The notes below the pieces were generated by a model. The model saw only the letters and a program-made list of their open reading frames with translations, was not told where the DNA came from and ran no database searches. Made by a program: the position numbers and the translations under genes. From assembly GCF_030813715.1 (NCBI RefSeq), contig NZ_JAUSUZ010000001.1, positions 7,732,501 through 7,796,500 on the forward strand: a stretch of 64,000 bases of DNA, written 5' to 3'. Below are positions 1 to 15,249 of the stretch, piece after piece. The stretch is from Catenuloplanes indicus (GTDB taxonomy: Bacteria; Actinomycetota; Actinomycetes; Mycobacteriales; Micromonosporaceae). How positions within the stretch are numbered: position 1 is the first letter of the stretch; each line of letters opens with the position of its first letter.

Positions 1-2181
<2,181 letters not shown>

Positions 2182-2265
2182 CACAAACTTTTCGAGACTG
2201 CTCGCGTCCACTGTGTGATATCTGAACAAACAACCGTGAACACCCCGGTTTGTAAAGTTCATAGT

Positions 2266-2382
2266 GTTACGGCGGTAATAGCGGAGGGGAAACGCCCGGT
2301 CACATTCCGAACCCGGAAGCTAAGCCCTCCAGCGCCGATGGTACTGCACTCGGGAGGGTGTGGGAGAGTAGGACACCGCCGG
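2266..2382 (+). rRNA. rrf: 5S ribosomal RNA
   Basis: A sequence of about 117 nt beginning GTTACGGCGGTAATAGCG and ending CACCGCCGGAC, whose ends pair to form helix I. The interior has the conserved CCGAACCCGGAAGCTAAG box and the GGGAGAGTAGG segment near the 3' end. It lies 85 nt after the 23S gene, the usual 23S-5S order. No tRNA is visible in the 23S-5S spacer. Confidence 0.97.
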
Positions 2383-2396
2383 ACTTCTTTACAATT

Positions 2397-2425
2397 GAGG
2401 GCCACCCTTCCCGGGGCGGCCCTTA
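2397..2425 (+). terminator. rrn operon terminator hairpin
   Basis: Just after 5S, AGGGCC(A)CCC and GGGG(C)GGCCCT form a GC-rich hairpin with a short TTCC-type loop, followed by TTAGTTGTATTT. The position directly behind 5S supports a terminator for the rRNA operon. Confidence 0.75.
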
Positions 2426-2516
2426 GTTGTATTTACGGGCTCGCCCGGGCCGGGCGTCATGGATCGACAGTTTCGTCGGCGCTGCGAGCCGCAGCGCCCC
2501 CAGGAAGGATGTACTC

Positions 2517-5402
2517 GTGAACCCAGGACCGGACGGCGACAACCCGCGTTCCCGGCGGGATGACGGCCGCGACGGGCGGGGCCGCGACGACGCGCGCGGC
2601 AACCGCGACTCTCGAGGCGGCGACCGCGACTTCCGGGGCGGCGACTCCCGCGGCGCCGGCTTCCGCAGCGGTGGAGACCGCGACGCCCGTGGCGGTGGTT
2701 TCCGCTCCGGCGGCGACCGTGACTCCCGTGGTGGCTTCCGGTCCGGTGGTGACTCCCGTGGCGGTGGCTTCCGGGCCGGTGGCGGCGACCGTGACGGTGG
2801 CGGGTTCCGTGGTGGAGACCGGGACTCGCGTGGCGGCGGATTCCGCTCGGGCGGCGACCGTGACGGTGGCTTCCGCGGTGGCGGTGGTGACCGCGCCGGT
2901 GGGTTCCGCTCCGGCGGTGACCGTGACTCCCGTGGCGGCGGTTTCCGGTCCGGCGGCGACCGCGATTCCCGTGGTGGTGGCTTCCGCAGCGGTGGGGGCG
3001 ACCGAGAGGGCGGCTTCCGCGGTGGCGACTCGCGCGGTGGCGGCTTCCGGGACCGGGACGGTCAGGGCAGCGGCTTCCGCAGCGGCGGTGGCGACCGCGC
3101 CGGTGGGTTCCGCTCCGGTGGTGACCGTGACTCGCGCGGTGGCGGTTTCCGTTCCGGCGGTGACCGTGAGGGTGGCTTCCGCGGCGGTGACCGGGACTCG
3201 CGCGGCGGTGGTTTCCGCAGTGGCGGGGACCGGGACGGTCAGGGCAGCGGCTTCCGCAGCGGCGGTGGCGACCGCGCGGGCGGGTTCCGCTCCGGTGGTG
3301 ACCGTGACTCGCGCGGTGGCGGTTTCCGTTCCGGCGGCGACCGTGAGGGTGGCTTCCGCGGCGGTGACCGGGACTCGCGCGGCGGTGGTTTCCGCAGTGG
3401 CGGGGACCGGGACGGTCAGGGCAGCGGCTTCCGCAGCGGCGGTGGCGACCGCGCCGGTGGGTTCCGCTCCGGTGGTGACCGTGACTCGCGCGGCGGTGGC
3501 TTCCGTTCCGGCGGTGACCGTGACTCCCGTGGCGGTGGTTTCCGCAGTGGCGGGGACCGGGACGGTCAGGGCGGCGGCTTCCGCAGCGGCGGTGGCGACC
3601 GCGCGGGCGGGTTCCGCTCCGGTGGTGACCGTGACTCGCGCGGCGGCGGTTTCCGTTCCGGCGGCGACCGCGATTCCCGTGGCGGTGGCTTCCGGTCCGG
3701 CGGCGGTGACCGTGAGGGCGGCGGGTTCCGTGGCGGTGACCGGGACTCTCGTGGCGGTGGCTTCCGGGACCGTGCGGGCCAGGGCAGTGGCGGCGGCGAG
3801 CGCGCCGGCGGGGACCGCGAGGGCGGCTTCCGCGGCGGTGACTCCCGCGGTGCCGGCCGCGAGGGTGGCTACCGTGGCGGTGATCGTGACACACGCGGTG
3901 GTGGCTTCCGCAGCGGCGGCGGCGACCGCGCGGGCGGGTTCCGCAGTGGCGGCGACCGTGAGGGTGGTTTCCGTGGCGGTGACCGGGACTCGCGCGGCGG
4001 CGGCTTCCGCAGCGGCGGCGAGCGATCCGGTGGGTTCCGTGGCGGCGACCGCGAGGGCGGTCCTCGTGGCGGTGACTCGCGCGGTGGCGGCTTCCGGGAC
4101 CGCGAGGGTCAGGGTGGCTTCCGCAGCGGCGGCGACCGTGACTCCCGTGGCGGTGGCTTCCGGTCCGGCGGCGACCGTGACTCGCGCGGCGGTGGTTTCC
4201 GCGGTGGTGACCGGGACTCGCGCGGCGGTGGCTTCCGCGAGCGTGAGGGCGGTGCCCGCGGTGGTGACTCGCGGGGCGGGTTCCGGGAGCGCGAAGGCGG
4301 GTTCCGCAACGACCGTGGCGGGTTCCGCGAGCGTGAGGGCCAGGGTGTCCGCGATGGTGACCGGGTCGAGCGCGGCGACGAGCGCGTCGAGGCGGCCCAG
4401 GTCGCGCCCACGATCCCGGACGAGGTCGAGGCGACCGAGTTGGACCGGGACGTACGCGCGGAGCTGCTCTCGCTGAACAAGCCGGTGCAGGAGAGCGTGG
4501 CCCGGCACCTGGTGATGACCGGCCGGCTGATCGACGAGGAGCCGGAGCTCGCGCTCGCGCACGCGCTGGCGGCCCGGCGTCTCGCGTCCCGGATCGCGGT
4601 GGTGCGGGAGGCCGTGGGGCTCGCCGCGTACCACGCGGGGGAGTGGCAGACCGCGATCGCGGAGATCCGGACGTACCACCGGATGACCGGCAAGCAGTCG
4701 CACGTGGCCGTGCTGGCCGACTGCGAGCGGGCGCTGGGCCGTCCGGAGCGAGCGATCGACCTGTTCCGCAACACGGACAGCGCGGCGCTGCCCAAGGACA
4801 CGGCCGTGGAGCTGCTGATCGTGGCCGCCGGTGCGCGCGGTGACATGGGCCAGAACGACGCGGCCGTGTCGATGCTGCAGGTTCGTGAGCTGACCGCGGA
4901 GGGCAAGGTCGAGCCGTGGACGGCCCGGCTGCGCTACGCCTACGCGGACGCGCTGCTGGCGACCGACCGTCGCGAGGAGGCGCGTGAGTGGTTCGCCCGC
5001 GCGGCGACCGCGGACGAGGACGGCGCGACCGACGCGGCCGAGCGTCTGCTCGAACTGGACGGCGTCGAGATCGAGGGCGAGGACGAGCCCGACGGCGACT
5101 CCGCCATGTCTGCGGCCGCCGGCCGTGACGCGGACGCGCCCGGCGACTCGGACGACGACGAGTCGGACGATGACGACGAGTCGGACGACGATGACGATGA
5201 CGACGAGTCGGACGACGACGATGACGACGACGAGGAGTCGGACGAGGACGACGAGCTGACGGGCGCCGCCGCGGAAGCCGGGGCCTCCGACACCGCCGCG
5301 GACGAGGACGACGAGGACGCGAAGCTGAAGGCCAAGGAGGCGGAGGAGTCCGCCGCACCGCGCGACCTCGGCCCGAAGTTCGACGACGGCAGCACTCGCT
5401 GA
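2517..5402 (+). CDS. TPR protein with giant RGG-type repeat N-terminus and acidic tail
   Basis: 961 residues. I place the start at GTG 2517 because AGGAAGG (2502-2508) sits 8 nt upstream; the open frame continues to 2427 without a ribosome site. Residues about 25-610 are a low-complexity array of FRSGGDRDSRGGG-like units rich in Gly, Arg, Asp and Phe. Residues about 639-855 form a helical tetratricopeptide-like domain (LALAHALAARRLASRIAVVR, then AERAIDLF- and EEAREWFARA-type helices). About 865-920 is a run of Asp/Ser/Glu. The TPR part and location (before the HAD and tlyA genes) match the family of M. tuberculosis Rv1691, which lacks such an N-terminus. RGG/FRG tracts in other proteins bind RNA and drive condensation; that role here is inference. 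Function unknown. Confidence 0.9.
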   Translation: MNPGPDGDNPRSRRDDGRDGRGRDDARGNRDSRGGDRDFRGGDSRGAGFRSGGDRDARGGGFRSGGDRDSRGGFRSGGDSRGGGFRAGGGDRDGGGFRGGDRDSRGGGFRSGGDRDGGFRGGGGDRAGGFRSGGDRDSRGGGFRSGGDRDSRGGGFRSGGGDREGGFRGGDSRGGGFRDRDGQGSGFRSGGGDRAGGFRSGGDRDSRGGGFRSGGDREGGFRGGDRDSRGGGFRSGGDRDGQGSGFRSGGGDRAGGFRSGGDRDSRGGGFRSGGDREGGFRGGDRDSRGGGFRSGGDRDGQGSGFRSGGGDRAGGFRSGGDRDSRGGGFRSGGDRDSRGGGFRSGGDRDGQGGGFRSGGGDRAGGFRSGGDRDSRGGGFRSGGDRDSRGGGFRSGGGDREGGGFRGGDRDSRGGGFRDRAGQGSGGGERAGGDREGGFRGGDSRGAGREGGYRGGDRDTRGGGFRSGGGDRAGGFRSGGDREGGFRGGDRDSRGGGFRSGGERSGGFRGGDREGGPRGGDSRGGGFRDREGQGGFRSGGDRDSRGGGFRSGGDRDSRGGGFRGGDRDSRGGGFREREGGARGGDSRGGFREREGGFRNDRGGFREREGQGVRDGDRVERGDERVEAAQVAPTIPDEVEATELDRDVRAELLSLNKPVQESVARHLVMTGRLIDEEPELALAHALAARRLASRIAVVREAVGLAAYHAGEWQTAIAEIRTYHRMTGKQSHVAVLADCERALGRPERAIDLFRNTDSAALPKDTAVELLIVAAGARGDMGQNDAAVSMLQVRELTAEGKVEPWTARLRYAYADALLATDRREEAREWFARAATADEDGATDAAERLLELDGVEIEGEDEPDGDSAMSAAAGRDADAPGDSDDDESDDDDESDDDDDDDESDDDDDDDEESDEDDELTGAAAEAGASDTAADEDDEDAKLKAKEAEESAAPRDLGPKFDDGSTR
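2600..4350 (+). repeat. In-frame RGG-type tandem repeats with 177-bp higher-order unit
   Basis: Short units coding GGDRDSRGGGFRS variants repeat about fifty times. On top of this, a longer block starting GACGGTCAGGGC recurs at 3057, 3234, 3411 and 3561; the first three are exactly 177 bp (59 codons) apart and nearly identical, so recent duplication or gene conversion is likely. All lengths are multiples of three and the frame is kept. The bias produces spurious long frames on both strands. Confidence 0.95.
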
Positions 5403-5472: not shown

Positions 5473-5874
5473 CTACGAGACGACGGCCAGCGGGGCGGAC
5501 AGCTCCGGTGCGACGTTGCGCGTGCACGAGGCCGGATTCTGCGAGTGGGCGATGACGGCGTCCAGCCGGTTCCGCGTGGAGATCAGCTCTTGGATCTGCC
5601 GGTCGATGCGGTCCCGTTCGGCCTTCATCAGCGCGGTCGACTCCTCGCTCGGCTCGTTCGCGTCGACGCACGGCATCAGCGCCGCGATGTGCCGGCTGGA
5701 CAGACCGGCCGCGTAGAGCTGCTGGATCAGCCGCACGCGCTCGACCGCGGCCTCCGGGTAGTGCCGCTGCCCGCTGGCGCTGCGCGTCGCGTGCAGCAGG
5801 CCCTGCTCCTCGTAGTAGCGCAGCGCGCGCACGCTCACGCCGCCGCGCGTGGCCAGATCGCCGATGCGTATCAC
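5473..5874 (-). CDS. MerR family transcriptional regulator (copy 1)
   Basis: 133 residues from GTG 5874, which has GGGAG 7 nt upstream; the longer TTG frame at 5916 would begin inside the palindromic operator and is rejected. The N-terminus VIRIGDLATRGGVSVRALRY is the MerR winged HTH, followed by RYYEEQGLL, and a coiled dimerisation helix (ERDRIDRQIQELISTRNRLD). The C-terminus is short, with Cys in MPCVDA and SCTRN but no clear effector domain, as in small MerR proteins of oxidoreductase loci. Paralogue of the next gene upstream (5966-6367), same strand. It probably controls itself through the TGACGT-CA-ACGTCA site at 5908-5921. The ligand is unknown. Confidence 0.88.
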   Translation of the reverse strand: MIRIGDLATRGGVSVRALRYYEEQGLLHATRSASGQRHYPEAAVERVRLIQQLYAAGLSSRHIAALMPCVDANEPSEESTALMKAERDRIDRQIQELISTRNRLDAVIAHSQNPASCTRNVAPELSAPLAVVS

Positions 5875-5902
5875 GGAAGGGCTCCCGCAGGGTGTCGAAG
5901 GT

Positions 5903-5924
5903 ACCTTTGACGTCAACGTCAGGT
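5903..5924. promoter_or_regulatory. Probable MerR operator 1
   Basis: TGACGT-CA-ACGTCA (5908-5921) is a perfect 6-bp inverted repeat in the 91-bp gap upstream of the first MerR gene. The same 14-mer with one change occurs upstream of the second MerR gene and SDR. Motifs of the form TTGAC-n-GTCAAGG are typical of MerR-family binding sites between long-spaced -35 and -10 elements. Binding by either paralogue is inference. Confidence 0.65.
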
Positions 5925-5965
5925 CCCAGCGTAGCTCCCGGCCCGGCGCGCAACCCGCGGGCGTG

Positions 5966-6367
5966 CTACGCCCGGACGGTCTGCGCCACGGGTGGGTAGA
6001 CCAGGTGGCCGCAGGTGGCCGGCGACGCGCCGGCGCACTCCTCGATCACCTGGTCGAGACGGTCCCTGGTGGTGATCAGCTCGCGGATCTGCCGGTCGAT
6101 CCGGTCTCGTTCCGTCCGCAGCAGCGTCATCGCCTCGTCGGTGGCTTCCTGTGCGTCGACGCACGGGAGCAGCACGGAGAGCGAACGGCTGGACAGCCCG
6201 GCCGCGAACAGGTCCTGGATCAGGCCGACCCGGTCGACCGCGGCCTCGGGATAGAACCGCTGGCCACCACCGGTACGGGCGGCGGGAAGCAGGCCCTGCT
6301 CCTCGTAGTAGCGCAGCGCGCGGGTGCTGACGCCGGTCTTCGCGGCGAGGTCGCCGATGCGGATCAC
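5966..6367 (-). CDS. MerR family transcriptional regulator (copy 2)
   Basis: 133 residues from GTG 6367 with GGGAG 7 nt upstream. The HTH is VIRIGDLAAKTGVSTRALRY, then RYYEEQGLLPAARTGGGQRF and a long coiled helix (ERDRIDRQIRELITTRDRLD). It is clearly related to copy 1 along the whole length (shared GQR.YPEAAV.RV.LIQ and CVDA...MTL), so the pair arose by tandem duplication. Divergent from the SDR gene at 6474, with 106 bp between starts that hold a MerR-type box, so control of the SDR is the likely job. Effector unknown. Confidence 0.88.
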   Translation of the reverse strand: MIRIGDLAAKTGVSTRALRYYEEQGLLPAARTGGGQRFYPEAAVDRVGLIQDLFAAGLSSRSLSVLLPCVDAQEATDEAMTLLRTERDRIDRQIRELITTRDRLDQVIEECAGASPATCGHLVYPPVAQTVRA

Positions 6368-6407
6368 TGAGCGCTCCCGGGAGGTGTCGGTCGTCACGAG
6401 ACTTGCC

Positions 6408-6440
6408 TTTGACGTCAACGTGAAGTTTTAGCGTAACCCC
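6408..6440 (+). promoter_or_regulatory. MerR-type promoter/operator for the SDR gene
   Basis: TTGACG (6409-6414) followed after 19 bp by TAACCC (6434-6439) gives the long spacer typical of MerR-activated promoters. The spacer starts with the TGACGTCAACGTGA box (6410-6423), matching operator 1 at 13 of 14 positions. It lies between the divergent MerR copy 2 and SDR genes. Confidence 0.6.
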
Positions 6441-6473
6441 GGCAGGATTCACTACGTACAGGGAGCAATGGTC

Positions 6474-7172
6474 ATGGATCTGAAGAATTCGGTCGTGCTT
6501 GTCACCGGGGCGAACCGCGGGCTGGGCCGGCACTTCGCACGCGAGCTGCTGGCGCGGGGCGCCGCCAAGGTCTACGCGACCGCGCGCCGGCCGGAGGCCG
6601 TGGACCTGCCCGGTGCCGAGGTCATCGGCCTGGACGTGACGGATCCGGCGCAGGTAAGCAGAGCAGCGGAGATCGCCACGGACGTGACGCTGCTGGTCAA
6701 CAACGCGGGCAACTCGTCGTTCGCGAACCTGGTGGACGGCGACGAGGCGGAGATCCGCGGTCAGCTGGACGCGTTCTTCTGGGGTCCGCTGTGGATGGTG
6801 CGCGCGTTCGCGCCGATCCTGCGGGCGAACGGCGGCGGTGGTGTTCTCAACATCAACTCGGCGATGTCCTGGGTGGCCGGTGACCGGGCGAACGCCTACC
6901 ACGTGGCGAAGGCCGCGCAGTGGGCGATGACCAACGCGGTCCGGGCCGAGCTGGCCGGGCAGGGCACGCACGTGGCGGGCGCGTACTTCGGCATGACGGA
7001 CACCGGGCACCAGGACTTCTGGACCGGGCCGCTGAACGACGCGGCGGACATCGCGCGGCGCACGCTGGCCGCGTTCGAGGACGGTCAGGTGGAGATCATC
7101 CCGGACGAGCTGGGCGCGGCCGCGAAGGCGATGCTGGCCGGCCCGCCGCAGGCCTACCCCACGGCAGGGTGA
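6474..7172 (+). CDS. Short-chain dehydrogenase/reductase (SDR)
   Basis: 232 residues. Start at ATG 6474 is favoured over ATG 6468: GGGAG at 6461-6465 is 8 nt from the former and only 2 from the latter. Classical SDR features are present: NAD(P) motif TGANRGLG near the N-terminus, basic residues after beta-2 (TARRPE) suggesting NADP preference, NNAG, catalytic Ser in NINSAMSW, and the YHVAK (YxxxK) pair. The substrate cannot be read from the sequence. It stands divergently from the MerR pair, the usual arrangement for regulators that induce a detoxifying oxidoreductase. Confidence 0.9.
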   Translation: MDLKNSVVLVTGANRGLGRHFARELLARGAAKVYATARRPEAVDLPGAEVIGLDVTDPAQVSRAAEIATDVTLLVNNAGNSSFANLVDGDEAEIRGQLDAFFWGPLWMVRAFAPILRANGGGGVLNINSAMSWVAGDRANAYHVAKAAQWAMTNAVRAELAGQGTHVAGAYFGMTDTGHQDFWTGPLNDAADIARRTLAAFEDGQVEIIPDELGAAAKAMLAGPPQAYPTAG

Positions 7173-7222
7173 CGCGCGCCTGGAATGATCGGGGGCGGAA
7201 CAGCGACGGCCGAGGAGGCAGC

Positions 7223-8047
7223 GTGAGCGATCGTCTGATCGACGGGTACGACCTGGTGATCTTCGACCTGGACGGGGTGGTCTACCTGATCGACCAGCCG
7301 ATCCCGGGCGCGGTCGAGGCCATCGCGCGGCTCCACGAGGCCGGCGTCCCGGTCGCCTACGCCACGAACAACGCGTCCCGCCGGGCCGCCGACGTGGCCG
7401 CGCTGCTGACCGGCATGGGTATCCCGGCCACGCCGGAGGAGGTGCTGACCTCGGCCGGCGCGTCCGCGGCCGTGCTCGCGGACCGGCTCCCGGCCGGCGC
7501 TACGGTGCTGGTGGTCGGCGCGGACGCGCTGCGCGCCGAGATCGAGGCGGTCGGCCTGACCGTGGTGAGCAAGGCGGAGGACCGGCCGGCCGCGGTCGCG
7601 CAGGGCTACGGTCCCGCGGTCGGCTGGGCGGACCTCGCCGAGGCCAGCGTGGCGATCCGGGCCGGCGCGATGTGGCTGGCCACGAACACGGACAAGACGC
7701 TGCCCAGCCCGCGCGGCCCGCTGCCGGGCAACGGCTCGCTGGTGGCCGCGCTGCGGCACGCGCTCGGCCGGGACCCGGACGTGATCGTCGGCAAGCCCGC
7801 GCCCGCGTTGTTCACCACCGCGGCCGAGCGGGTCGGTGCGACGAAGGCGCTGGTGGTCGGCGACCGGCTGGACACCGATCTGGAGGGCGCGGTCCGGGCC
7901 GGCATGGACGGGCTGCTCGTGCTCACCGGCGTACACACGGTCGAGGACCTGCGCAACGCGCCGGCCGAGCAGAAGGCCACGTTCGTCGCGCCCGACCTCT
8001 CCGGCCTCTTCGCACCGGCGGTCAAGGCCGACGACTACAAGGCATAG
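7223..8047 (+). CDS. HAD-IIA family phosphatase (NagD/glycerol-phosphate phosphatase-like)
   Basis: 274 residues from GTG 7223, with GAGGAGG upstream. HAD motifs in order: VIFDLDGVVY (nucleophile and acid Asp), ATNNASR (motif II), IVGKPAPALF (motif III Lys), VVGDRLDTDLEGA (motif IV Asp pair). The C2-type cap lies between motifs II and III, as in NagD and p-nitrophenylphosphatase relatives. In M. tuberculosis the corresponding position (Rv1692, before tlyA) holds a glycerol-3-phosphate phosphatase, so a role in glycerophospholipid recycling is a reasonable inference. It converges on the SCP2 gene, with a strong hairpin between them. Confidence 0.9.
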   Translation: MSDRLIDGYDLVIFDLDGVVYLIDQPIPGAVEAIARLHEAGVPVAYATNNASRRAADVAALLTGMGIPATPEEVLTSAGASAAVLADRLPAGATVLVVGADALRAEIEAVGLTVVSKAEDRPAAVAQGYGPAVGWADLAEASVAIRAGAMWLATNTDKTLPSPRGPLPGNGSLVAALRHALGRDPDVIVGKPAPALFTTAAERVGATKALVVGDRLDTDLEGAVRAGMDGLLVLTGVHTVEDLRNAPAEQKATFVAPDLSGLFAPAVKADDYKA

Positions 8048-8636: not shown

Positions 8637-9353
8637 ATGCCGAAGGAAGCGTGGCGGGCCTACCTGGACCTCGCCCTGGGACTGACCGAGAACTCGCGCA
8701 AGCAGGCCACCAGAACCGCGATGAGGCTGGTGGGCAAGGGCGGCGCGACCGCGGTCCAGCTGCAGGCACTCGTCGAGGACGCGCTGGCGGCCGGCACCGC
8801 GAACCGGGCCGTGGTCGAGCGCCTGGTCCGCACCGAGGTCGACCGGGCACTGACCGCGGTCGGGCTGGTCACGTCCGACGAGGTCGCGTCGCTGCGGCGG
8901 CGGGTGGCCGAGCTGGAGGGCCGGCTCGCGGCCCGGCCGGTGGACGTACCCGGTGACCTGACCGTCGAACCCGCGGTGGAGGCGGCTGCGGCCGTGTCCG
9001 CGGCGAACCCGGCCCCGGTCACGGTGAAGAAGGTCGTCGCGAAGAAGGCGGTGGCGAAGAAGGCGGTGGCGAAGGCGCCGGGCGGCGGCACGGCCGTGCC
9101 GGACGCGACGGCCGCGCCCGCGGCCCCGGCCGAGGACGAGCCGGTCGTGGAGACGCCCGCCACGACGCCGGCCGCGAAGATCACGCCGCCGCGCAAGGTC
9201 GCCAAGAAGGTACCCACGATCAAGGCCACGCCGCCGGCGAAGAAGGCCGTGCCGACGCCCGCCGACCTGCCGCCCGCGGCGAAGAAGGCACCGGCCAGGC
9301 GCGCGAAGAAGGCGGTACCGCCGCTCTTCGACGACGGGACCACCCGCGCATGA
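8637..9353 (+). CDS. Phasin-like protein with Lys/Ala-rich histone H1-like tail
   Basis: 238 residues from ATG 8637 with GAGGGG upstream. Residues 1-105 are helical, with amphipathic heptads (ALGLTENSRKQATRTAMRLV; VTSDEVASLRRRVAELEGRL coiled coil) as in polyhydroxyalkanoate granule-associated proteins. From about 120 onward it is Ala, Pro and Lys rich with AKK repeats (VVAKKAVAKKAVAK; APARRAKKAVPP), like the DNA-binding tails of actinobacterial histone-like proteins. The last residues FDDGTTR resemble the end of the RGG-TPR protein (FDDGSTR). Overlaps the next start by ATGA. Function unproven; granule or nucleoid association is inference. Confidence 0.8.
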   Translation: MPKEAWRAYLDLALGLTENSRKQATRTAMRLVGKGGATAVQLQALVEDALAAGTANRAVVERLVRTEVDRALTAVGLVTSDEVASLRRRVAELEGRLAARPVDVPGDLTVEPAVEAAAAVSAANPAPVTVKKVVAKKAVAKKAVAKAPGGGTAVPDATAAPAAPAEDEPVVETPATTPAAKITPPRKVAKKVPTIKATPPAKKAVPTPADLPPAAKKAPARRAKKAVPPLFDDGTTRA

Positions 9354-9628: not shown

Positions 9629-10513
9629 ATGGCACGCCGCATCCGTCTAGACGCCGAACTCGTCCGCCGCGGCCTGGCCCGCTCCCGGGAGCAGGCCGCC
9701 TCGCTGATCGAGGCCGGTCGCGTCGAGGTCCGGGGCGTGGTCGCCCGCAAGGCCGCCGCGCAGCTCGACCCCGCCGAGCCGATCGTGGTCACCGGCGCGG
9801 ACCCGGTCGACGAGTACGTGTCCCGCGGCGGGCACAAGCTGGCCGGTGCGCTCGCCGCGTTCGGGCCCCGGGGCCTGGCGGTGGCCGGGCGGCGGTGCCT
9901 GGACGCGGGCGCGTCCACCGGCGGTTTCACCGACGTGCTGCTGCGTGCGGACGCGGCCGAGGTGGTCGCGGTGGACGTCGGCTACGGGCAGCTGGCGTGG
10001 AAGCTCCGTACCGACGAGCGGGTGCGGGTCTTCGAACGCACGAACGTGCGCACGCTCACGCCGGAGACCATCGGTGGCCCGGTCGACCTGGTCGTGTCCG
10101 ACCTGTCCTTCATCTCGCTGCGCCTGGTGCTGCCCGCGCTGGCCGGCTGCACGCTACCGGACGCGGACCTGGCGCTGATGGTCAAGCCGCAGTTCGAGGT
10201 CGGCAAGGAGCGGGTCGGCGAGGGCGGCGTGGTCCGCGACCCGGCGCTGCGTGCGGAGGCGGTGCTCGACGTGTGTGCCGCCGCGCTGGAGCTGGGCCTC
10301 GGGCTGGCCGGGGTGGCCGCGAGCCCGCTGCCCGGGCCGAGCGGGAACGTCGAGTTCTTCGTGTGGCTGCGGCGCGGCGAACCGGCCGCGGATCCGGGCC
10401 ACGTGCGCGCGGTCGTCGAGGCCGGACCCACGGGTACGGTGGCGGAGCACGCGCCGCAGACCGGCGCGGAATCGCTTGTTGACAGGGGAGTGACGAGTGA
10501 CGAGCACCGCTAA
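9629..10513 (+). CDS. tlyA: TlyA family rRNA 2'-O-methyltransferase
   Basis: 294 residues from ATG 9629. An N-terminal S4 RNA-binding domain (RLDAELVRRGLARSREQAAS...GRVEVRG) precedes a Rossmann methyltransferase: DEYVSRGGHKL (catalytic Lys), CLDAGASTGGFTDVLL (SAM motif I), VVAVDVGYGQL, DLSFISL (Asp), ALMVKPQFEVG (Lys) and GPSGNVEFF (Glu), the K-D-K-E set. TlyA methylates 16S C1409 and 23S C1920; loss gives capreomycin/viomycin resistance in mycobacteria. The C-terminus is about 25 residues longer than usual and runs 17 nt into nadK. Confidence 0.96.
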   Translation: MARRIRLDAELVRRGLARSREQAASLIEAGRVEVRGVVARKAAAQLDPAEPIVVTGADPVDEYVSRGGHKLAGALAAFGPRGLAVAGRRCLDAGASTGGFTDVLLRADAAEVVAVDVGYGQLAWKLRTDERVRVFERTNVRTLTPETIGGPVDLVVSDLSFISLRLVLPALAGCTLPDADLALMVKPQFEVGKERVGEGGVVRDPALRAEAVLDVCAAALELGLGLAGVAASPLPGPSGNVEFFVWLRRGEPAADPGHVRAVVEAGPTGTVAEHAPQTGAESLVDRGVTSDEHR

Positions 10514-11399
10514 CCGGTCGGCGCTGCTGGTGACCCACACGGGGCGCCGGCACAGCACGGAGCACGCGGCGTCGATAGCGAACGACCTCGTGCGCGCGGG
10601 CTTCGAGGTGCGGGTGGTGGCCTCCGAGATCGGCGATCTGGACCTGCCGCCCGGCGTGACGCCGGTGTTCGGCCCGTCCGCGGCCGAGGGCGTGGAGATC
10701 GTGTTCGCGCTCGGCGGTGACGGCACGTTCCTGCGTGCGGCCGAGCTGGCCCGGCCGAACAAGGCGCCGCTGCTCGGCATCAACCTCGGCAAGGTCGGCT
10801 TCCTGGCCGAGGCCGAGATCAGCGACATCGACCAGGCCGTGGCGGACGTGGTGCGCGGTGCGTACACCGTGGACGAGCGGCTCACCCTGGACGTCAAGGC
10901 CGAGCTGGACGGCGAGCTGATCGCGGAGAGCTGGGCGCTCAACGAGGTCACGGTGGAGAAGGGCCAGCGCGCGCAGATGCTGGAGCTGCGCGTGGACGTG
11001 GACGGGCGGCCGCTGTCCCGGTACGGCTGCGACGGCGTGGTCTGCGCGACCCCGACCGGCTCGACCGCGTACGCGTTCTCGGCCGGCGGCCCGGTGGTCT
11101 GGCCCGAGGTGGAGGCGCTGCTGCTGGTGCCGGTCGCGGCGCACGCGCTGTTCAGCAAGCCGCTGGTGACCGCGCCCACGTCCACGTTCGTGATCACGGT
11201 GGATCCGTACACGTCGGTCGCCACGCTCTGCGCGGACGGCCACCGCGTGTTCGACCTGCCGCCCGGCGCGAAGGTCACCGTCCGGCGCGGTGCGCAACCG
11301 GTGCGTGTCGTCCAGCTGGCGCCGCGACCGTTCACCGATCGGCTGGTGGCGAAATTCGACCTCCCGGTTCTCGGCTGGCGGGGTACGAAGCGGCGGTAA
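10497..11399 (+). CDS. nadK: NAD kinase
   Basis: 300 residues from GTG 10497, with AGGGGAG 6 nt upstream and 17 nt overlap with tlyA. Key motifs: ALGGDGTFLRAAELA (GGDG, ATP site), LGINLGKVGFLAE, NEVTVEKG (NE/D), and DGVVCATPTGSTAYAFSAGGP (Gly/Ser/Thr-rich NAD site). It phosphorylates NAD to NADP in the cytosol. Length is normal for the family (ppnK in older naming). Next gene recN follows after 73 bp. Confidence 0.96.
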   Translation: MTSTANRSALLVTHTGRRHSTEHAASIANDLVRAGFEVRVVASEIGDLDLPPGVTPVFGPSAAEGVEIVFALGGDGTFLRAAELARPNKAPLLGINLGKVGFLAEAEISDIDQAVADVVRGAYTVDERLTLDVKAELDGELIAESWALNEVTVEKGQRAQMLELRVDVDGRPLSRYGCDGVVCATPTGSTAYAFSAGGPVVWPEVEALLLVPVAAHALFSKPLVTAPTSTFVITVDPYTSVATLCADGHRVFDLPPGAKVTVRRGAQPVRVVQLAPRPFTDRLVAKFDLPVLGWRGTKRR

Positions 11400-11472
11400 T
11401 CACGGTGTTCCCGGCAATTGGCGCACCGCTCGGCTGGAAATGTGTCAGAGGACGCGGCTACTGTCTTTGCCT

Positions 11473-13230
11473 GTGCTGGAAGAGCTGCGTATCACCGGCC
11501 TGGGCGTCATCGAGGACACCACACTGCCGCTGACCGGCGGGATGAACGTGATAACCGGTGAGACCGGCGCCGGGAAGACCATGGTCGTGACCGGCCTCGG
11601 CCTGCTGTTCGGCGGGCGGGCCGACGCCGGTCGCGTGCGAAGCGACCCGGGCCGCGCGGTCGTCGAGGGGCGGTTGCGCCTGACCGGCAAGATCGCCGAC
11701 GCCGTGCTGGCCCGGATCACCGACGCGGGCGCGGAGGCGGACGACGACGGCGCGGTCATGCTGTCGCGCACCGTCACCATCGAGGGCCGCTCCCGGGCCC
11801 ACGTCGGCGGCCGGTCCGCGCCGGTCGCCGTGCTGACCGACGTCGGTGAGCGCGTGCTGGCCGTGCACGGTCAGTCCGACCAGCTGCGCCTGCTGCGGCC
11901 GGCGGAGCAGCGCGCCGCGCTCGACCGGTTCGCCGGTCCGGAGCACGAGAAGCTGCTGGAGACGTTCCGGGAGACGTTCACCAAGTGGCGTCGCACCGCG
12001 GACGACCTGGCCGACCGGCGCCGCAACGCGCGCGACCGCAACCAGGAGGCCGACCTCCTCAAGCTCGGGCTGGACGAGATCACCCGGGTCGACCCGCAGC
12101 CGGGGGAGGATGACGAGCTGAAGGCGGAGGCGCAGCGCCTCGAGCACGCGGAGGGTCTGCGGACCGCGGCCGCGCTGGCCTACCAGTCGGTGGCCGGCGG
12201 CGCCGAGGCCGGCGACGAGACGCCGGACGCGACCAGCCTGCTCGGCGTCGCCCGGCGCACGCTGGAGGGGCAGGCGGGCGTCGACGCGAAGCTCGGCGAC
12301 CTCGCGGGCCGGATCGAGGAGGCCGCCACGCTGGTCGCGGACGTGACCGCGGAGCTGTCGTCCTATCTGGACGCGCTGGACGCGGACCCGAACCGGCTGG
12401 CCGCGATCTACGAGCGGCGGGCGCTGCTGCGCGGGCTGACCCGAAAGTACGCGGACGACATCGACGGCGTGATCGCCTGGGCGGAGACCGCGCGGACCCG
12501 GCTCGGCGAGCTGGACACGTCCGACGAGCTGCTCGAGGAGCTGGAGAGGGAGCGCCAGCGGCTCGAGGCGGAGGTGGCGGAGCAGGCAGCCCGGCTGACC
12601 GCGGCCCGCACCGAGGCGGCCGGCCGGTTCGCCGAGCAGGTCAGCGTCGAGCTGGCCGGGCTGGCGATGCCGCACGCGCGGGTCGAGGTCGCGGTGCTGC
12701 CCCGGACCGCGGGCAAGAGCGAGCCGTCGGTGACCGTGGACGGCACCGAGGTCGGCGTGACCGCGGACGGCGCGGACGAGGTCGAGCTGCGCCTGCTGGC
12801 CCACCCGGGCGCACCGGCGCTGCCGCTGCAACGCGGCGCGTCCGGCGGTGAGCTGTCCCGGGTGATGCTGGCGATCGAGGTGGTCTTCGCCGGTGCCGGT
12901 GGCCCGCCGACGCTGGTCTTCGACGAGGTCGACTCCGGTGTGGGCGGCACCGCCGCGGTGGAGATCGGGCGGCGGCTGGCCCGGCTGGCGCGCAGCCACC
13001 AGGTGCTGGTGGTGACGCACCTGCCGCAGGTGGCCGCGTTCGCGGACCGGCACCTGGTGGTGGCGAAGGACACCGGCGGCGCGGTGACCACCAGCGGCGT
13101 GCGGGTCGTCGAGGACACGGACCGGGCCCGGGAACTCTCCCGCATGCTCGCCGGCCTGCCCGACTCCGACCTGGGCATCGCACACGCGGAGGAGCTGCTG
13201 GCGGTCGCCGACCGCGAGAAGCGGCGCTGA
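11473..13230 (+). CDS. recN: DNA repair protein RecN
   Basis: 585 residues from GTG 11473. SMC-like ATPase: Walker A GETGAGKT near residue 32, long coiled-coil arms (residues about 160-360), signature GASGGELSRVMLAIE, Walker B LVFDEVDSGVGG, then LARSHQVLVVTHLPQVAAF. RecN acts in double-strand break repair. No ribosome site precedes the GTG; instead TACTGT (11459-11464) lies 8 nt upstream, fitting a -10 box and a leaderless transcript. I see no actinobacterial LexA box in the 73-bp gap. A strong hairpin follows the stop. Confidence 0.96.
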   Translation: MLEELRITGLGVIEDTTLPLTGGMNVITGETGAGKTMVVTGLGLLFGGRADAGRVRSDPGRAVVEGRLRLTGKIADAVLARITDAGAEADDDGAVMLSRTVTIEGRSRAHVGGRSAPVAVLTDVGERVLAVHGQSDQLRLLRPAEQRAALDRFAGPEHEKLLETFRETFTKWRRTADDLADRRRNARDRNQEADLLKLGLDEITRVDPQPGEDDELKAEAQRLEHAEGLRTAAALAYQSVAGGAEAGDETPDATSLLGVARRTLEGQAGVDAKLGDLAGRIEEAATLVADVTAELSSYLDALDADPNRLAAIYERRALLRGLTRKYADDIDGVIAWAETARTRLGELDTSDELLEELERERQRLEAEVAEQAARLTAARTEAAGRFAEQVSVELAGLAMPHARVEVAVLPRTAGKSEPSVTVDGTEVGVTADGADEVELRLLAHPGAPALPLQRGASGGELSRVMLAIEVVFAGAGGPPTLVFDEVDSGVGGTAAVEIGRRLARLARSHQVLVVTHLPQVAAFADRHLVVAKDTGGAVTTSGVRVVEDTDRARELSRMLAGLPDSDLGIAHAEELLAVADREKRR

Positions 13231-13944: not shown

Positions 13945-15249
13945 TCAGGGGGAAATGGCCGCTGAGCCGGTGGCTGAGCGGCGGACGAGGCGCAGGGTGT
14001 CGGTGAAGCTGATCCGGTCGGGGTCGATCGCGGCGGCGTCGGCGGCGGCGGTGATCAGGACGGTGAGTGCGTGCTGGACGAGCAGCCAGGCCCAGATTTC
14101 CTGGTGGACGAGGTCGGGCAGTTTCGAGCGCAGGATCCGGCCGGGCCCGCGGAGGTGGGTTTTGAGCTGGTCGTTGGCGGTTTCGTGTTCCCATCGCAGG
14201 TGGTATGCCTCGGCGAGTTCGTCCGGGCCGGCCTGGGCGGGGTCGGTGATGGTGGTGGCCAGGGTGATCAGCTCACCGGTGCCGTTACCGGCCCGGTCCG
14301 GGACGTCGTACTCGACGATCCGGACCAGGTGGGCGGCGGGCAGGCCACGGTCGTTGATCGCGTCGTCGCAGGTGTCCAGGGTCCCGCCGGCCGCGGCGGC
14401 CAGGATCCGGTCCCGGCGGCCACCGCGGATCGTCTTGTCCATCAACACGGTCAGATAGGTGCCGTCGCCGAGGATCTCGATCACCGGGAGCCTGATCCCG
14501 GCCTGGATCCGCCACAGCAGGTCCGCGCCGGTCGCCTGCGCCCGGTCCCACGCCGTAAACGAGTAGAAGGCACGGTCGGCGGTCAGCAGTTCCCCGCGTC
14601 GCAGCCGCGAATACAACGGCATGGCCAGGGTCTGTTCGGCGACCGCATACGCGCCGACCTCCGCCGCCAGGAACGCGTGTGTCCCGCACTCGGTCAACGC
14701 CACGACCCGGGCTTTCGGGAACGCCGACGGGCCACCACCGGTCCGGGAGTACCCGAACTCGGCCGCGTTCTCCATCGTGTCCGGCACGTCCACGTCGAAC
14801 CCGTCGATGGCAAGGACCCGCCGGTCCCGCAACCACGCACCTGACGTGACCGGTGACGCGACCGGCCGGGCGACCCGCTCGAACACCTCCGCCAGCACAT
14901 CCCGGCCCAGCCGCTTCCTGGCCTGAGAAATCCCACCCGGCGTCGGCGCCAACCAGCCCGCATCCCAGCACCCGAACCGGTCCAGTCCACCGGTCACCTT
15001 CTTCGCGACCTCGGCATAGTCATCATCCGCGAACAGCCACAACCCCATCGTCAGATACGCCGTCACATGCGGCGGCAACTTCCCATCCGACCGTTTCGCA
15101 CCCACACCGCACTGCGCCACCGCCCCATCAACCGCATCCCGCGGCACCGCCGTCACCAGCACACCGACCGACACCTGATCCGGCCGCACCCCCACACCCG
15201 ACACCACACCATCGAAGCAGACAAAGCCACCAGACCACCCACCAGGCAA
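13945..15249 (-). CDS. IS4-family transposase
   Basis: Up to 434 residues. Residues about 12-100 match the IS4 N-terminal domain (VRPDQVSVGVLVTAVPRDAV). DDE catalytic positions: D in VLAIDGFDVDVPDT, D in LLTADRAFYSF, and E in the YREK signature YHLRWEHETANDQLK (Y-x2-R-x3-E-x6-K), diagnostic for IS4. No frameshift or internal stop, so it looks functional. The TTG at 15249 abuts the right inverted repeat and a GTG near 15207 is an alternative start; the first residues are uncertain. A plausible promoter lies in the AT-rich repeat end. Confidence 0.93.
   Translation of the reverse strand: MPGGWSGGFVCFDGVVSGVGVRPDQVSVGVLVTAVPRDAVDGAVAQCGVGAKRSDGKLPPHVTAYLTMGLWLFADDDYAEVAKKVTGGLDRFGCWDAGWLAPTPGGISQARKRLGRDVLAEVFERVARPVASPVTSGAWLRDRRVLAIDGFDVDVPDTMENAAEFGYSRTGGGPSAFPKARVVALTECGTHAFLAAEVGAYAVAEQTLAMPLYSRLRRGELLTADRAFYSFTAWDRAQATGADLLWRIQAGIRLPVIEILGDGTYLTVLMDKTIRGGRRDRILAAAAGGTLDTCDDAINDRGLPAAHLVRIVEYDVPDRAGNGTGELITLATTITDPAQAGPDELAEAYHLRWEHETANDQLKTHLRGPGRILRSKLPDLVHQEIWAWLLVQHALTVLITAAADAAAIDPDRISFTDTLRLVRRSATGSAAISP

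What the first reader, a model, noticed from the sequence alone, without database searches (positions are those of the whole stretch)
2517..5402. RGG-repeat expansion fused to a conserved TPR protein beside an rRNA operon
The conserved part (TPR, Rv1691 position) is only about 220 residues; here about 600 residues of FRSGGDRDSRGGG-type repeats precede it and a poly-Asp/Ser tail follows. Arg/Gly/Phe tracts plus an acidic tail are the make-up of condensate-forming RNA-binding proteins, which are rare in bacteria. The gene lies directly behind 23S-5S and ahead of tlyA, rluB and der, so an rRNA or ribosome-related role is attractive but unproven.
Basis: partly seen in the sequence, partly recalled or inferred. 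Interest (0 to 1): 0.8.

Follow-up and report, generated by a model that had tools for sequence, protein, structure and literature searches.

The report
Arg-Gly-rich TPR protein behind rRNA
The gene right after a ribosomal RNA operon in this soil actinobacterium encodes a folded protein-binding domain carrying a long, selectively maintained arginine-glycine-phenylalanine repeat arm of the kind that clusters around RNA in animal cells, and the same gene sits in the same place in most of the actinobacteria tested, with no function that I could find described.

Summary
One gene (2517-5402, 961 aa) has a 634-residue R/G/D/F repeat arm, a TPR core and an acidic tail, behind 23S-5S rRNA. The arm is translated and under protein-level selection: in frame-blind DNA alignments of five congeners all 281 gaps are multiples of three and changes pile up at codon position 3. 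No ATG, GTG or TTG is in frame between residues 2 and 641. It is no oddity of this strain. The core is in 187 of 197 genomes of the class. An Arg-rich, mostly Lys-poor, net-positive arm precedes it in most families sampled, Phe/Tyr-rich and about 530 aa in Micromonosporaceae, usually shorter elsewhere. A 5S gene lies upstream in 72 of 85 genomes, a linkage I found no report of. The mycobacterial counterpart co-purifies with crosslinked RNA polymerase but showed no DNA association (PMC7092591). Best reading: an RNA-associated, probably condensate-prone scaffold whose TPR core docks a transcription or ribosome-assembly partner. RNA binding, condensation, partner and rRNA specificity are unproven.

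The parts
1..2182 (+). 23S rRNA (5' part lies outside the window)
   Evidence: Rfam RF02541
2268..2384 (+). 5S rRNA, diverged from the 5S of the other four rrn copies of this genome
   Evidence: RF00001 100.2 bits; others 94.8 bits; alignment
2390..2431 (+). hairpin after 5S with a 14-pair outer stem, rrn terminator-type; a similar hairpin follows the other four 5S copies
   Evidence: the consensus scan called no terminator here
2478..2498 (+). small hairpin just before the Shine-Dalgarno; seen in the Catenuloplanes copies, not obviously in other genera (by eye)
2502..2509 (+). Shine-Dalgarno AGGAAGGA
   Evidence: similar sites in relatives
2517..4418 (+). Arg-Gly-Asp-Phe repeat arm, residues 1-634, Lys-free, net +31
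4419..5105 (+). conserved TPR core, residues 635-863
5106..5402 (+). acidic Asp-rich tail (98 residues, net -41) and stop
6920..8047 (+). ORF holding a HAD-type hydrolase (true start probably later in the ORF); counterpart of the Rv1692 position by gene order
   Evidence: gene order in PMC3072309
9629..10513 (+). tlyA-type gene (S4 + FtsJ methyltransferase domains)
10497..11399 (+). NAD kinase
11290..13230 (+). recN-type ORF (start may lie later)

Best explanation
A near-universal adaptor protein of the class. Its TPR superhelix holds a protein partner, probably part of the transcription or ribosome-assembly machinery. Its long disordered Arg-Gly-aromatic arm makes many weak contacts with RNA and with itself (Arg-base, Arg-Phe/Tyr), countered by the acidic tail. 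It therefore gathers the partner around RNA, most plausibly nascent rRNA, as a condensate-prone scaffold. Shown by calculation: the arm is translated, its composition is maintained, the core is conserved, and the gene is linked to rRNA operons. Shown by others for the mycobacterial counterpart: co-purification with crosslinked RNA polymerase. Inferred: disorder, RNA binding, condensation, the partner, rRNA specificity.
For: Protein-level selection on the arm: 281 of 281 gaps in multiples of 3; differences 839/986/2227 at codon positions 1/2/3, ten overlapping pairs of five congeners. In 68 of 69 Micromonosporaceae rows the arm exceeds 200 aa: median 530 aa, R 25%, G 33%, D+E 20%, aromatics 7.4%. 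K:R is 47:8851 in arms against 229:1510 in cores, and 2105 of 2604 Phe/Tyr are followed by R or K. All 68 arms are net positive; 66 of 68 tails have net charge -10 or lower. Other families keep an Arg-rich arm with a different repeat. Core present in 143 of 150 family genomes and 187 of 197 class genomes, including twelve genomes of 1.3-1.5 Mb with one 5S each, where the core match begins 254-422 nt after 5S. 5S upstream on the same strand within 2.6 kb in 72 of 85 genomes. MSMEG_3754/Rv1691 was selected from the high-confidence list of an RNA polymerase pull-down and gave no DNA; the authors allow that it may be RNA associated (PMC7092591). Rho and three DEAD-box helicases of the same genome carry Lys-free Arg-rich tracts.
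Against: No RNA-binding or condensation data exist for any member in what I read. The mycobacteria-like proteins have arms of only about 35-95 residues, so the pull-down of the M. smegmatis protein speaks for the core rather than the arm. That pull-down used formaldehyde and also brought in metabolic enzymes. The arm matches no Pfam, NCBIfam or PDB entry. The core fold is a generic TPR superhelix. TPR-linked rrn copies do not have weaker terminator tails than other copies (mean 2.5 against 2.6 T in 8 nt), so transcription from the rRNA operon is not shown. The linkage is absent in 4 of 85 genomes and looser (3.4-3.7 kb) in 2. Lys is not excluded everywhere: arms of f7, f45 and one f8 genome have 6-8% Lys. 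Aromatics are scarce in most families outside Micromonosporaceae. One family genome with a displaced rrn (G013) has a short arm of roughly 110-140 residues.
Confidence: 0.45

Rival explanations
1. RNA-decay, RNA-chaperone or general stress-granule-like role: the arm binds RNA without rRNA preference, like the tails of Rho and DEAD-box helicases in the same cell, and the rrn location is only inherited gene order.
For: Arg-rich Lys-free tracts in Rho (L257) and in three of eight fetched DEAD-box loci (L259, L261, L262) of the genome; the rrn copy next to the gene has a terminator-type hairpin like the other copies; in mycobacteria an rrn operon behind tyrS (rrnB) is a known arrangement (abstract start of PMC10218544 in a search listing).
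Against: Linkage kept in 72 of 85 genomes over very large divergence, even where there is a single 5S, is more than drift of gene order usually leaves.
Confidence: 0.25
2. The TPR core is the working part; the arm is a solubility, spacing or anti-aggregation device balanced by the acidic tail, with no specific RNA role.
For: Arm length and repeat type vary widely (about 20-730 aa); mycobacteria-like genomes do with a short arm; TPR fold confident.
Against: Near-total exclusion of Lys in favour of Arg in Micromonosporaceae, regular aromatics next to Arg and RGG clusters are not needed for a mere spacer.
Confidence: 0.2
3. Neutral slippage of a GC-rich tandem repeat, tolerated in frame, without function.
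For: Tandem repeats with many periods, and arm length differing between congeners (581-666 codons).
Against: Excess of third-position changes, only in-frame gaps, 20 of 21 differences at third positions in recent copies; composition kept with different repeats in other families.
Confidence: 0.05
4. Growth-rate-coupled protein (compatible with the others): the gene is read as the last cistron of the rRNA operon, so its level follows rRNA output.
For: Gap from 5S to the called start is 59-193 nt in 22 of 27 loci where it was measured, of 40 fetched; in three Phytohabitans loci and in L170 only about 20 nt separate the hairpin from the start codon, leaving no room for a promoter after the hairpin (read by eye; its twin L171 has the same hairpin and tail).
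Against: A terminator-type hairpin precedes the gene; no weaker U-tract than other copies; a promoter inside the 5S region is possible; no consensus promoter was found, but the scan is weak for actinobacteria.
Confidence: 0.35

Closest known systems
Rv1691 / MSMEG_3754 (mycobacterial TPR protein of the lprJ-recN operon)
   Same: Same place in the gene order (before HAD, tlyA, NAD kinase, recN), TPR core; hits in the mycobacteria-like genus g45 at 49-54% identity to the core
   Different: Arm of only about 35-95 residues and no acidic tail in the three mycobacteria-like loci read (L159-L161). Rv1691 itself was not aligned by sequence, and g45 as Mycobacterium is my inference; identity rests on gene order and the published orthologue pair
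Eukaryotic RGG/RG-motif proteins (FUS, LAF-1, Ddx4, nucleolin, fibrillarin; recalled)
   Same: Gly/Arg-rich disordered arm with aromatics; nucleolin also pairs acidic tracts with an RG tract (recalled)
   Different: Asp in nearly every repeat, no RRM or helicase, no PDB sequence match, a tri-RGG only once; no evidence of common descent
Arg-rich tracts of Rho and DEAD-box helicases of the same genome
   Same: Lys-free R/G/D-rich tracts, e.g. RRFDG repeats in L261
   Different: Attached to known RNA enzymes; only the densest 100-residue window of each was compared; the second Rho-like hit (L258) and L260, L263, L264 lack such a Lys-free tract
Bacterial condensate proteins such as RNase E BR-bodies (PMC10412687, search listing and abstract start only)
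   Same: A bacterial protein proposed to gather RNA machinery by phase separation
   Different: No sequence relation tested; no enzyme domain here

Membership tests
TPR protein superfamily | tandem helix-turn-helix TPR repeats | tested here: met
RGG/RG-motif RNA-binding proteins | clustered RGG/RG repeats (spacing rule of up to 4 residues, recalled) | tested here: met
   39 RGG, 12 neighbouring pairs within 4 residues, one triple; 43 of 68 family arms have at least one such pair, 11 of 68 a triple
RGG/RG-motif RNA-binding proteins | binds RNA | not testable with these tools
   none for any member; PMC7092591 authors only allow it
condensate-forming proteins | phase separation in vitro or in cells | not testable with these tools
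   composition only
Rv1691 family | TPR core in the HAD-tlyA-nadK-recN gene order | tested here: met
   gene order of PMC3072309; two MerR genes and a dehydrogenase are inserted before HAD here; Rv1691 sequence itself not aligned
ribosome-assembly or rRNA-transcription factor | association with rRNA, ribosome or RNA polymerase | not tested
   literature: mycobacterial counterpart in RNA polymerase pull-down

The most novel reading that the evidence does not exclude
Actinobacteria possess a nucleolus-like scaffold: an Arg-Gly-aromatic/TPR/acidic protein encoded, and in some lineages apparently transcribed, as the last gene of an rRNA operon, which condenses on nascent rRNA and recruits RNA polymerase and ribosome-assembly factors, its arm lengthening in large-genome, filamentous lineages.
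Probability: 0.2. Interest if true: 0.92.

Novelty: new variant of a known kind. Interest (0 to 1): 0.64.

Why it matters
It points to a mostly single-copy protein that nearly all genomes of the class keep, including many of 1.3-1.5 Mb, usually at a fixed place beside an rRNA operon, and that in some families carries a long and regular RGG-type arm. If it organises rRNA synthesis it would give bacteria a direct, testable analogue of nucleolar scaffolds. Because repeat length and chemistry vary from lineage to lineage on a fixed core, it is also a natural series for asking how arm length and Arg/aromatic content set condensation.

Tried and rejected
Neutral repeat expansion: rejected on codon-position evidence. 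Separate TPR start after the repeats: not in the window gene; 2 of 68 family rows have an SD-like signal near the core (L085, L148), not followed up. Weaker rrn terminator at the TPR-linked copy: tested on 23 linked and 39 other copies, no difference; the hairpin picker chose doubtful hairpins in several rows (e.g. L201-L205, L233-L235, L207, and L166), so this is a rough test. Shared C-terminal FDDG ending between this protein and the 8637-9353 ORF: looked striking, but among the C-termini printed it shows only in the Catenuloplanes copies (a related ending in L143), dropped. A sequence relative of the arm in the PDB, Pfam or NCBIfam: none. Foldseek and VIA-align show generic helical-repeat chains, nearly all TPR, with no family standing out. 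Literature on an RGG-TPR protein of actinobacteria: the listings (0 papers; 15 of 56 papers shown) showed nothing on it; only open-licence papers are held. The name searches Rv1691 and MSMEG_3754 gave 3 and 2 papers; one of these (PMC11754781) was seen as a listing only.

Start calls were unreliable for loci cut short and were used only as a guide; replace them, and starts there are automatic too (first SD-led start). In the family census 100 loci were on hand (L031-L110, L139-L158); 69 gave a start call; 68 with an arm over 200 aa were counted, L155 dropped as cut by the contig; 31 gave none, I think mostly because the contig begins inside the repeat, not checked one by one. Among those 31, L150 (G013) really has a short arm (112 residues, 140 open codons), and L140 (G001) has only 185 open codons before the core, which may be a short arm or a frame break; neither is in the 68. 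In one search, 7 of 143 hits have an open frame under 460 codons (contig ends or short arms, not resolved). The tails of L142 and L075 look wrong or absent. In one search, L242 was not counted and L240's start is doubtful.
Full report
WHAT IS THERE. The reported gene is real and its coordinates are exact: GTG at 2517, stop ending at 5402, 961 residues, with a Shine-Dalgarno AGGAAGGA ending seven bases before the start. The 23S gene ends at 2182 and 5S lies at 2268-2384. Residues 1-634 are a repeat arm (GGFRSGGDRDSRGG and variants) with 136 Arg, no Lys, 244 Gly, 105 Asp+Glu, 47 Phe, 1 Tyr and net charge +31. The core has net charge -19 and the 98-residue tail -41. Downstream come two MerR genes and a short-chain dehydrogenase, then a HAD hydrolase, an SCP2-like gene on the other strand, a phasin-like Lys-rich protein, TlyA, NAD kinase and RecN. 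This resembles the mycobacterial order Rv1691, Rv1692, Rv1693, tlyA, ppnK, recN as listed in PMC3072309 (passages read). I did not align Rv1691 itself. The genome is a Catenuloplanes or close to it: the C. japonicus core is 88% identical.

IS THE ARM TRANSLATED AND SELECTED? Long open frames mean little here, because the opposite strand is open for 989 codons too. So I aligned the arm DNA of five congeners without regard to frame. All 281 gaps over the ten pairs are multiples of three, every aligned base pair is in frame, and differences fall 839/986/2227 at codon positions 1/2/3. The ten pairs share sequences, so these are not independent counts. Within the window gene, two recent repeat pairs differ at 21 sites, 20 of them third positions. 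There is no ATG, GTG or TTG in frame between residues 2 and 641, so the core cannot be made separately from such a start before it. Aromatics are spaced evenly (sd 2.4; shuffles average 12.0, minimum 7.6).

HOW WIDESPREAD. The core is found in 143 of 150 genomes of the family, 187 of 197 of the class (5 of the 187 have two matches) and 119 of 296 of the phylum. It is kept in genomes of 1.3-1.5 Mb; of the ten class genomes without a match, four are very small (three of genus g286, one of g303) and six are 1.7-6.5 Mb assemblies. Across 68 Micromonosporaceae rows the arm has a median length of 530 (283-691), R 25%, G 33%, D+E 20%, aromatics 7.4% and median net +30. Lys:Arg is 47:8851 against 229:1510 in the cores; 2105 of 2604 Phe/Tyr are followed by Arg or Lys. 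All 68 arms are net positive and 66 of 68 tails are clearly acidic. Not in the 68: L150 (G013), a family member with a short arm, and L140 (G001), with only 185 open codons before the core. Outside the family the arm persists with other repeats: RRDD/FRRDD in f4 (probably Streptomyces, my inference from size and six rrn copies), GGYRRDG and KRPYEKRDG in f8, RPSSGRPSS in the 1.3 Mb genomes, APRSGG elsewhere. In 19 of 20 further loci from 19 families I read an Arg-rich, net-positive stretch of 47 to 727 residues with at most 4% Lys. L242 is the exception: its automatic start runs into sequence of another kind and I do not count it. Lys reaches 6-8% in f7, in f45 and in one f8 genome. Aromatic residues are scarce in most of those families, so the Phe/Tyr-rich form is a lineage feature. 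The three mycobacteria-like loci read have about 35-95 residues.

THE rRNA LINK. I compared the position of the core with 5S genes in 85 genomes that have the core and few contigs (1-5), chosen for contig number and not for linkage, but unevenly spread: 36 are Micromonosporaceae and 12 belong to one small-genome genus (distances). A 5S gene on the same strand lies within 2.6 kb upstream of the core in 72. In 4 the two fall at opposite contig ends or on different contigs (G062, G068, G416, G546); in 2 they are 3.4-3.7 kb apart on the same strand (G514, G594); in 3 the core position was not printed (G501, G520, G551); in 4 they are apart (G013, G165, G229, G299). In two genomes with two copies of the gene each copy lies behind its own 5S (G362, G504); other two-match genomes were not checked. 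In twelve small genomes with a single 5S the core match follows it at 254-422 nt. In the window's genome, with five 5S genes, one operon carries the gene. For mycobacteria a published abstract places rrnB downstream of tyrS (PMC10218544, listing only). The genomes G187, G223 and G572 of the mycobacteria-like genus show the core 220-286 nt behind a 5S, while G299, with a single 5S, lacks the neighbourhood. No search listing mentioned this linkage; only held rRNA-operon terms.

EXPRESSION. A strong hairpin follows 5S (2390-2431; z -3.7 for the whole stretch 2385-2530). The other four operons have a similar one, so it is the usual rrn end structure. TPR-linked copies do not have weaker T-tracts (2.5 against 2.6 T in 8, 23 and 39 copies). 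In Phytohabitans (L076, L082, L087) and in L170 of G362 only about 20 nt lie between hairpin and start codon, and the ribosome-binding site is in them. There the message should begin before or within the hairpin, by read-through or from a promoter at the 5S end. This is suggestive, not shown.

MECHANISM. The only experimental hints that I found concern the M. smegmatis protein. It was chosen for testing from the high-confidence list of an RNA polymerase beta-subunit crosslink pull-down, did not bring down DNA, and the authors say such proteins may be RNA associated (PMC7092591: abstract, section 5 part 1, passages of section 6, and section 7 read). It also appears in a ClpC1 interactome table (PMC10433963, one passage). 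I read this as the core docking near transcription, with the arm adding RNA contact and self-association. Rho (L257) and three of eight fetched DEAD-box loci of this genome (13 hits in all) carry Lys-free Arg-rich tracts too; the second Rho-like hit does not. This supports an RNA setting and also shows that such tracts are not unique. A coding link between RGG stretches and G-quadruplex mRNA has been proposed for human proteins (PMC11789052, passages); I did not test it here.

VERDICT. Observation confirmed, interpretation partly supported. What is new is that the arrangement is a class-wide, mostly rRNA-linked protein family with a selected Arg-rich arm and, in what I could search, no described function.

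Noticed in passing
window 2268-2384: The 5S gene of the TPR-linked operon differs from the 5S of the other four operons in the genome at several positions (100.2 against 94.8 bits), so this rrn copy is not homogenised with the rest.
   Followed up: partly
window 5473-7172: Two similar MerR-type regulators and a short-chain dehydrogenase stand between the TPR gene and the HAD gene.
   Followed up: partly
window 8637-9353: Phasin-like protein with an AKKA-rich Lys tail ends in PLFDDGTTRA; the TPR protein of the same genome ends in PKFDDGSTR. Among the endings printed this is not seen on TPR proteins of other genera.
   Followed up: partly
window 13945-15249: ORF that looks like a transposase lies on the minus strand between recN and the next genes; judged by eye only.
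   Followed up: no
L170, L171 (G362) and G504: Genomes in which two rRNA operons each carry a copy of the TPR gene behind 5S.
   Followed up: partly
L257, L261: Rho and a DEAD-box helicase of this genome carry long Lys-free Arg-rich tracts, the helicase with RRFDG repeats resembling the arm.
   Followed up: partly
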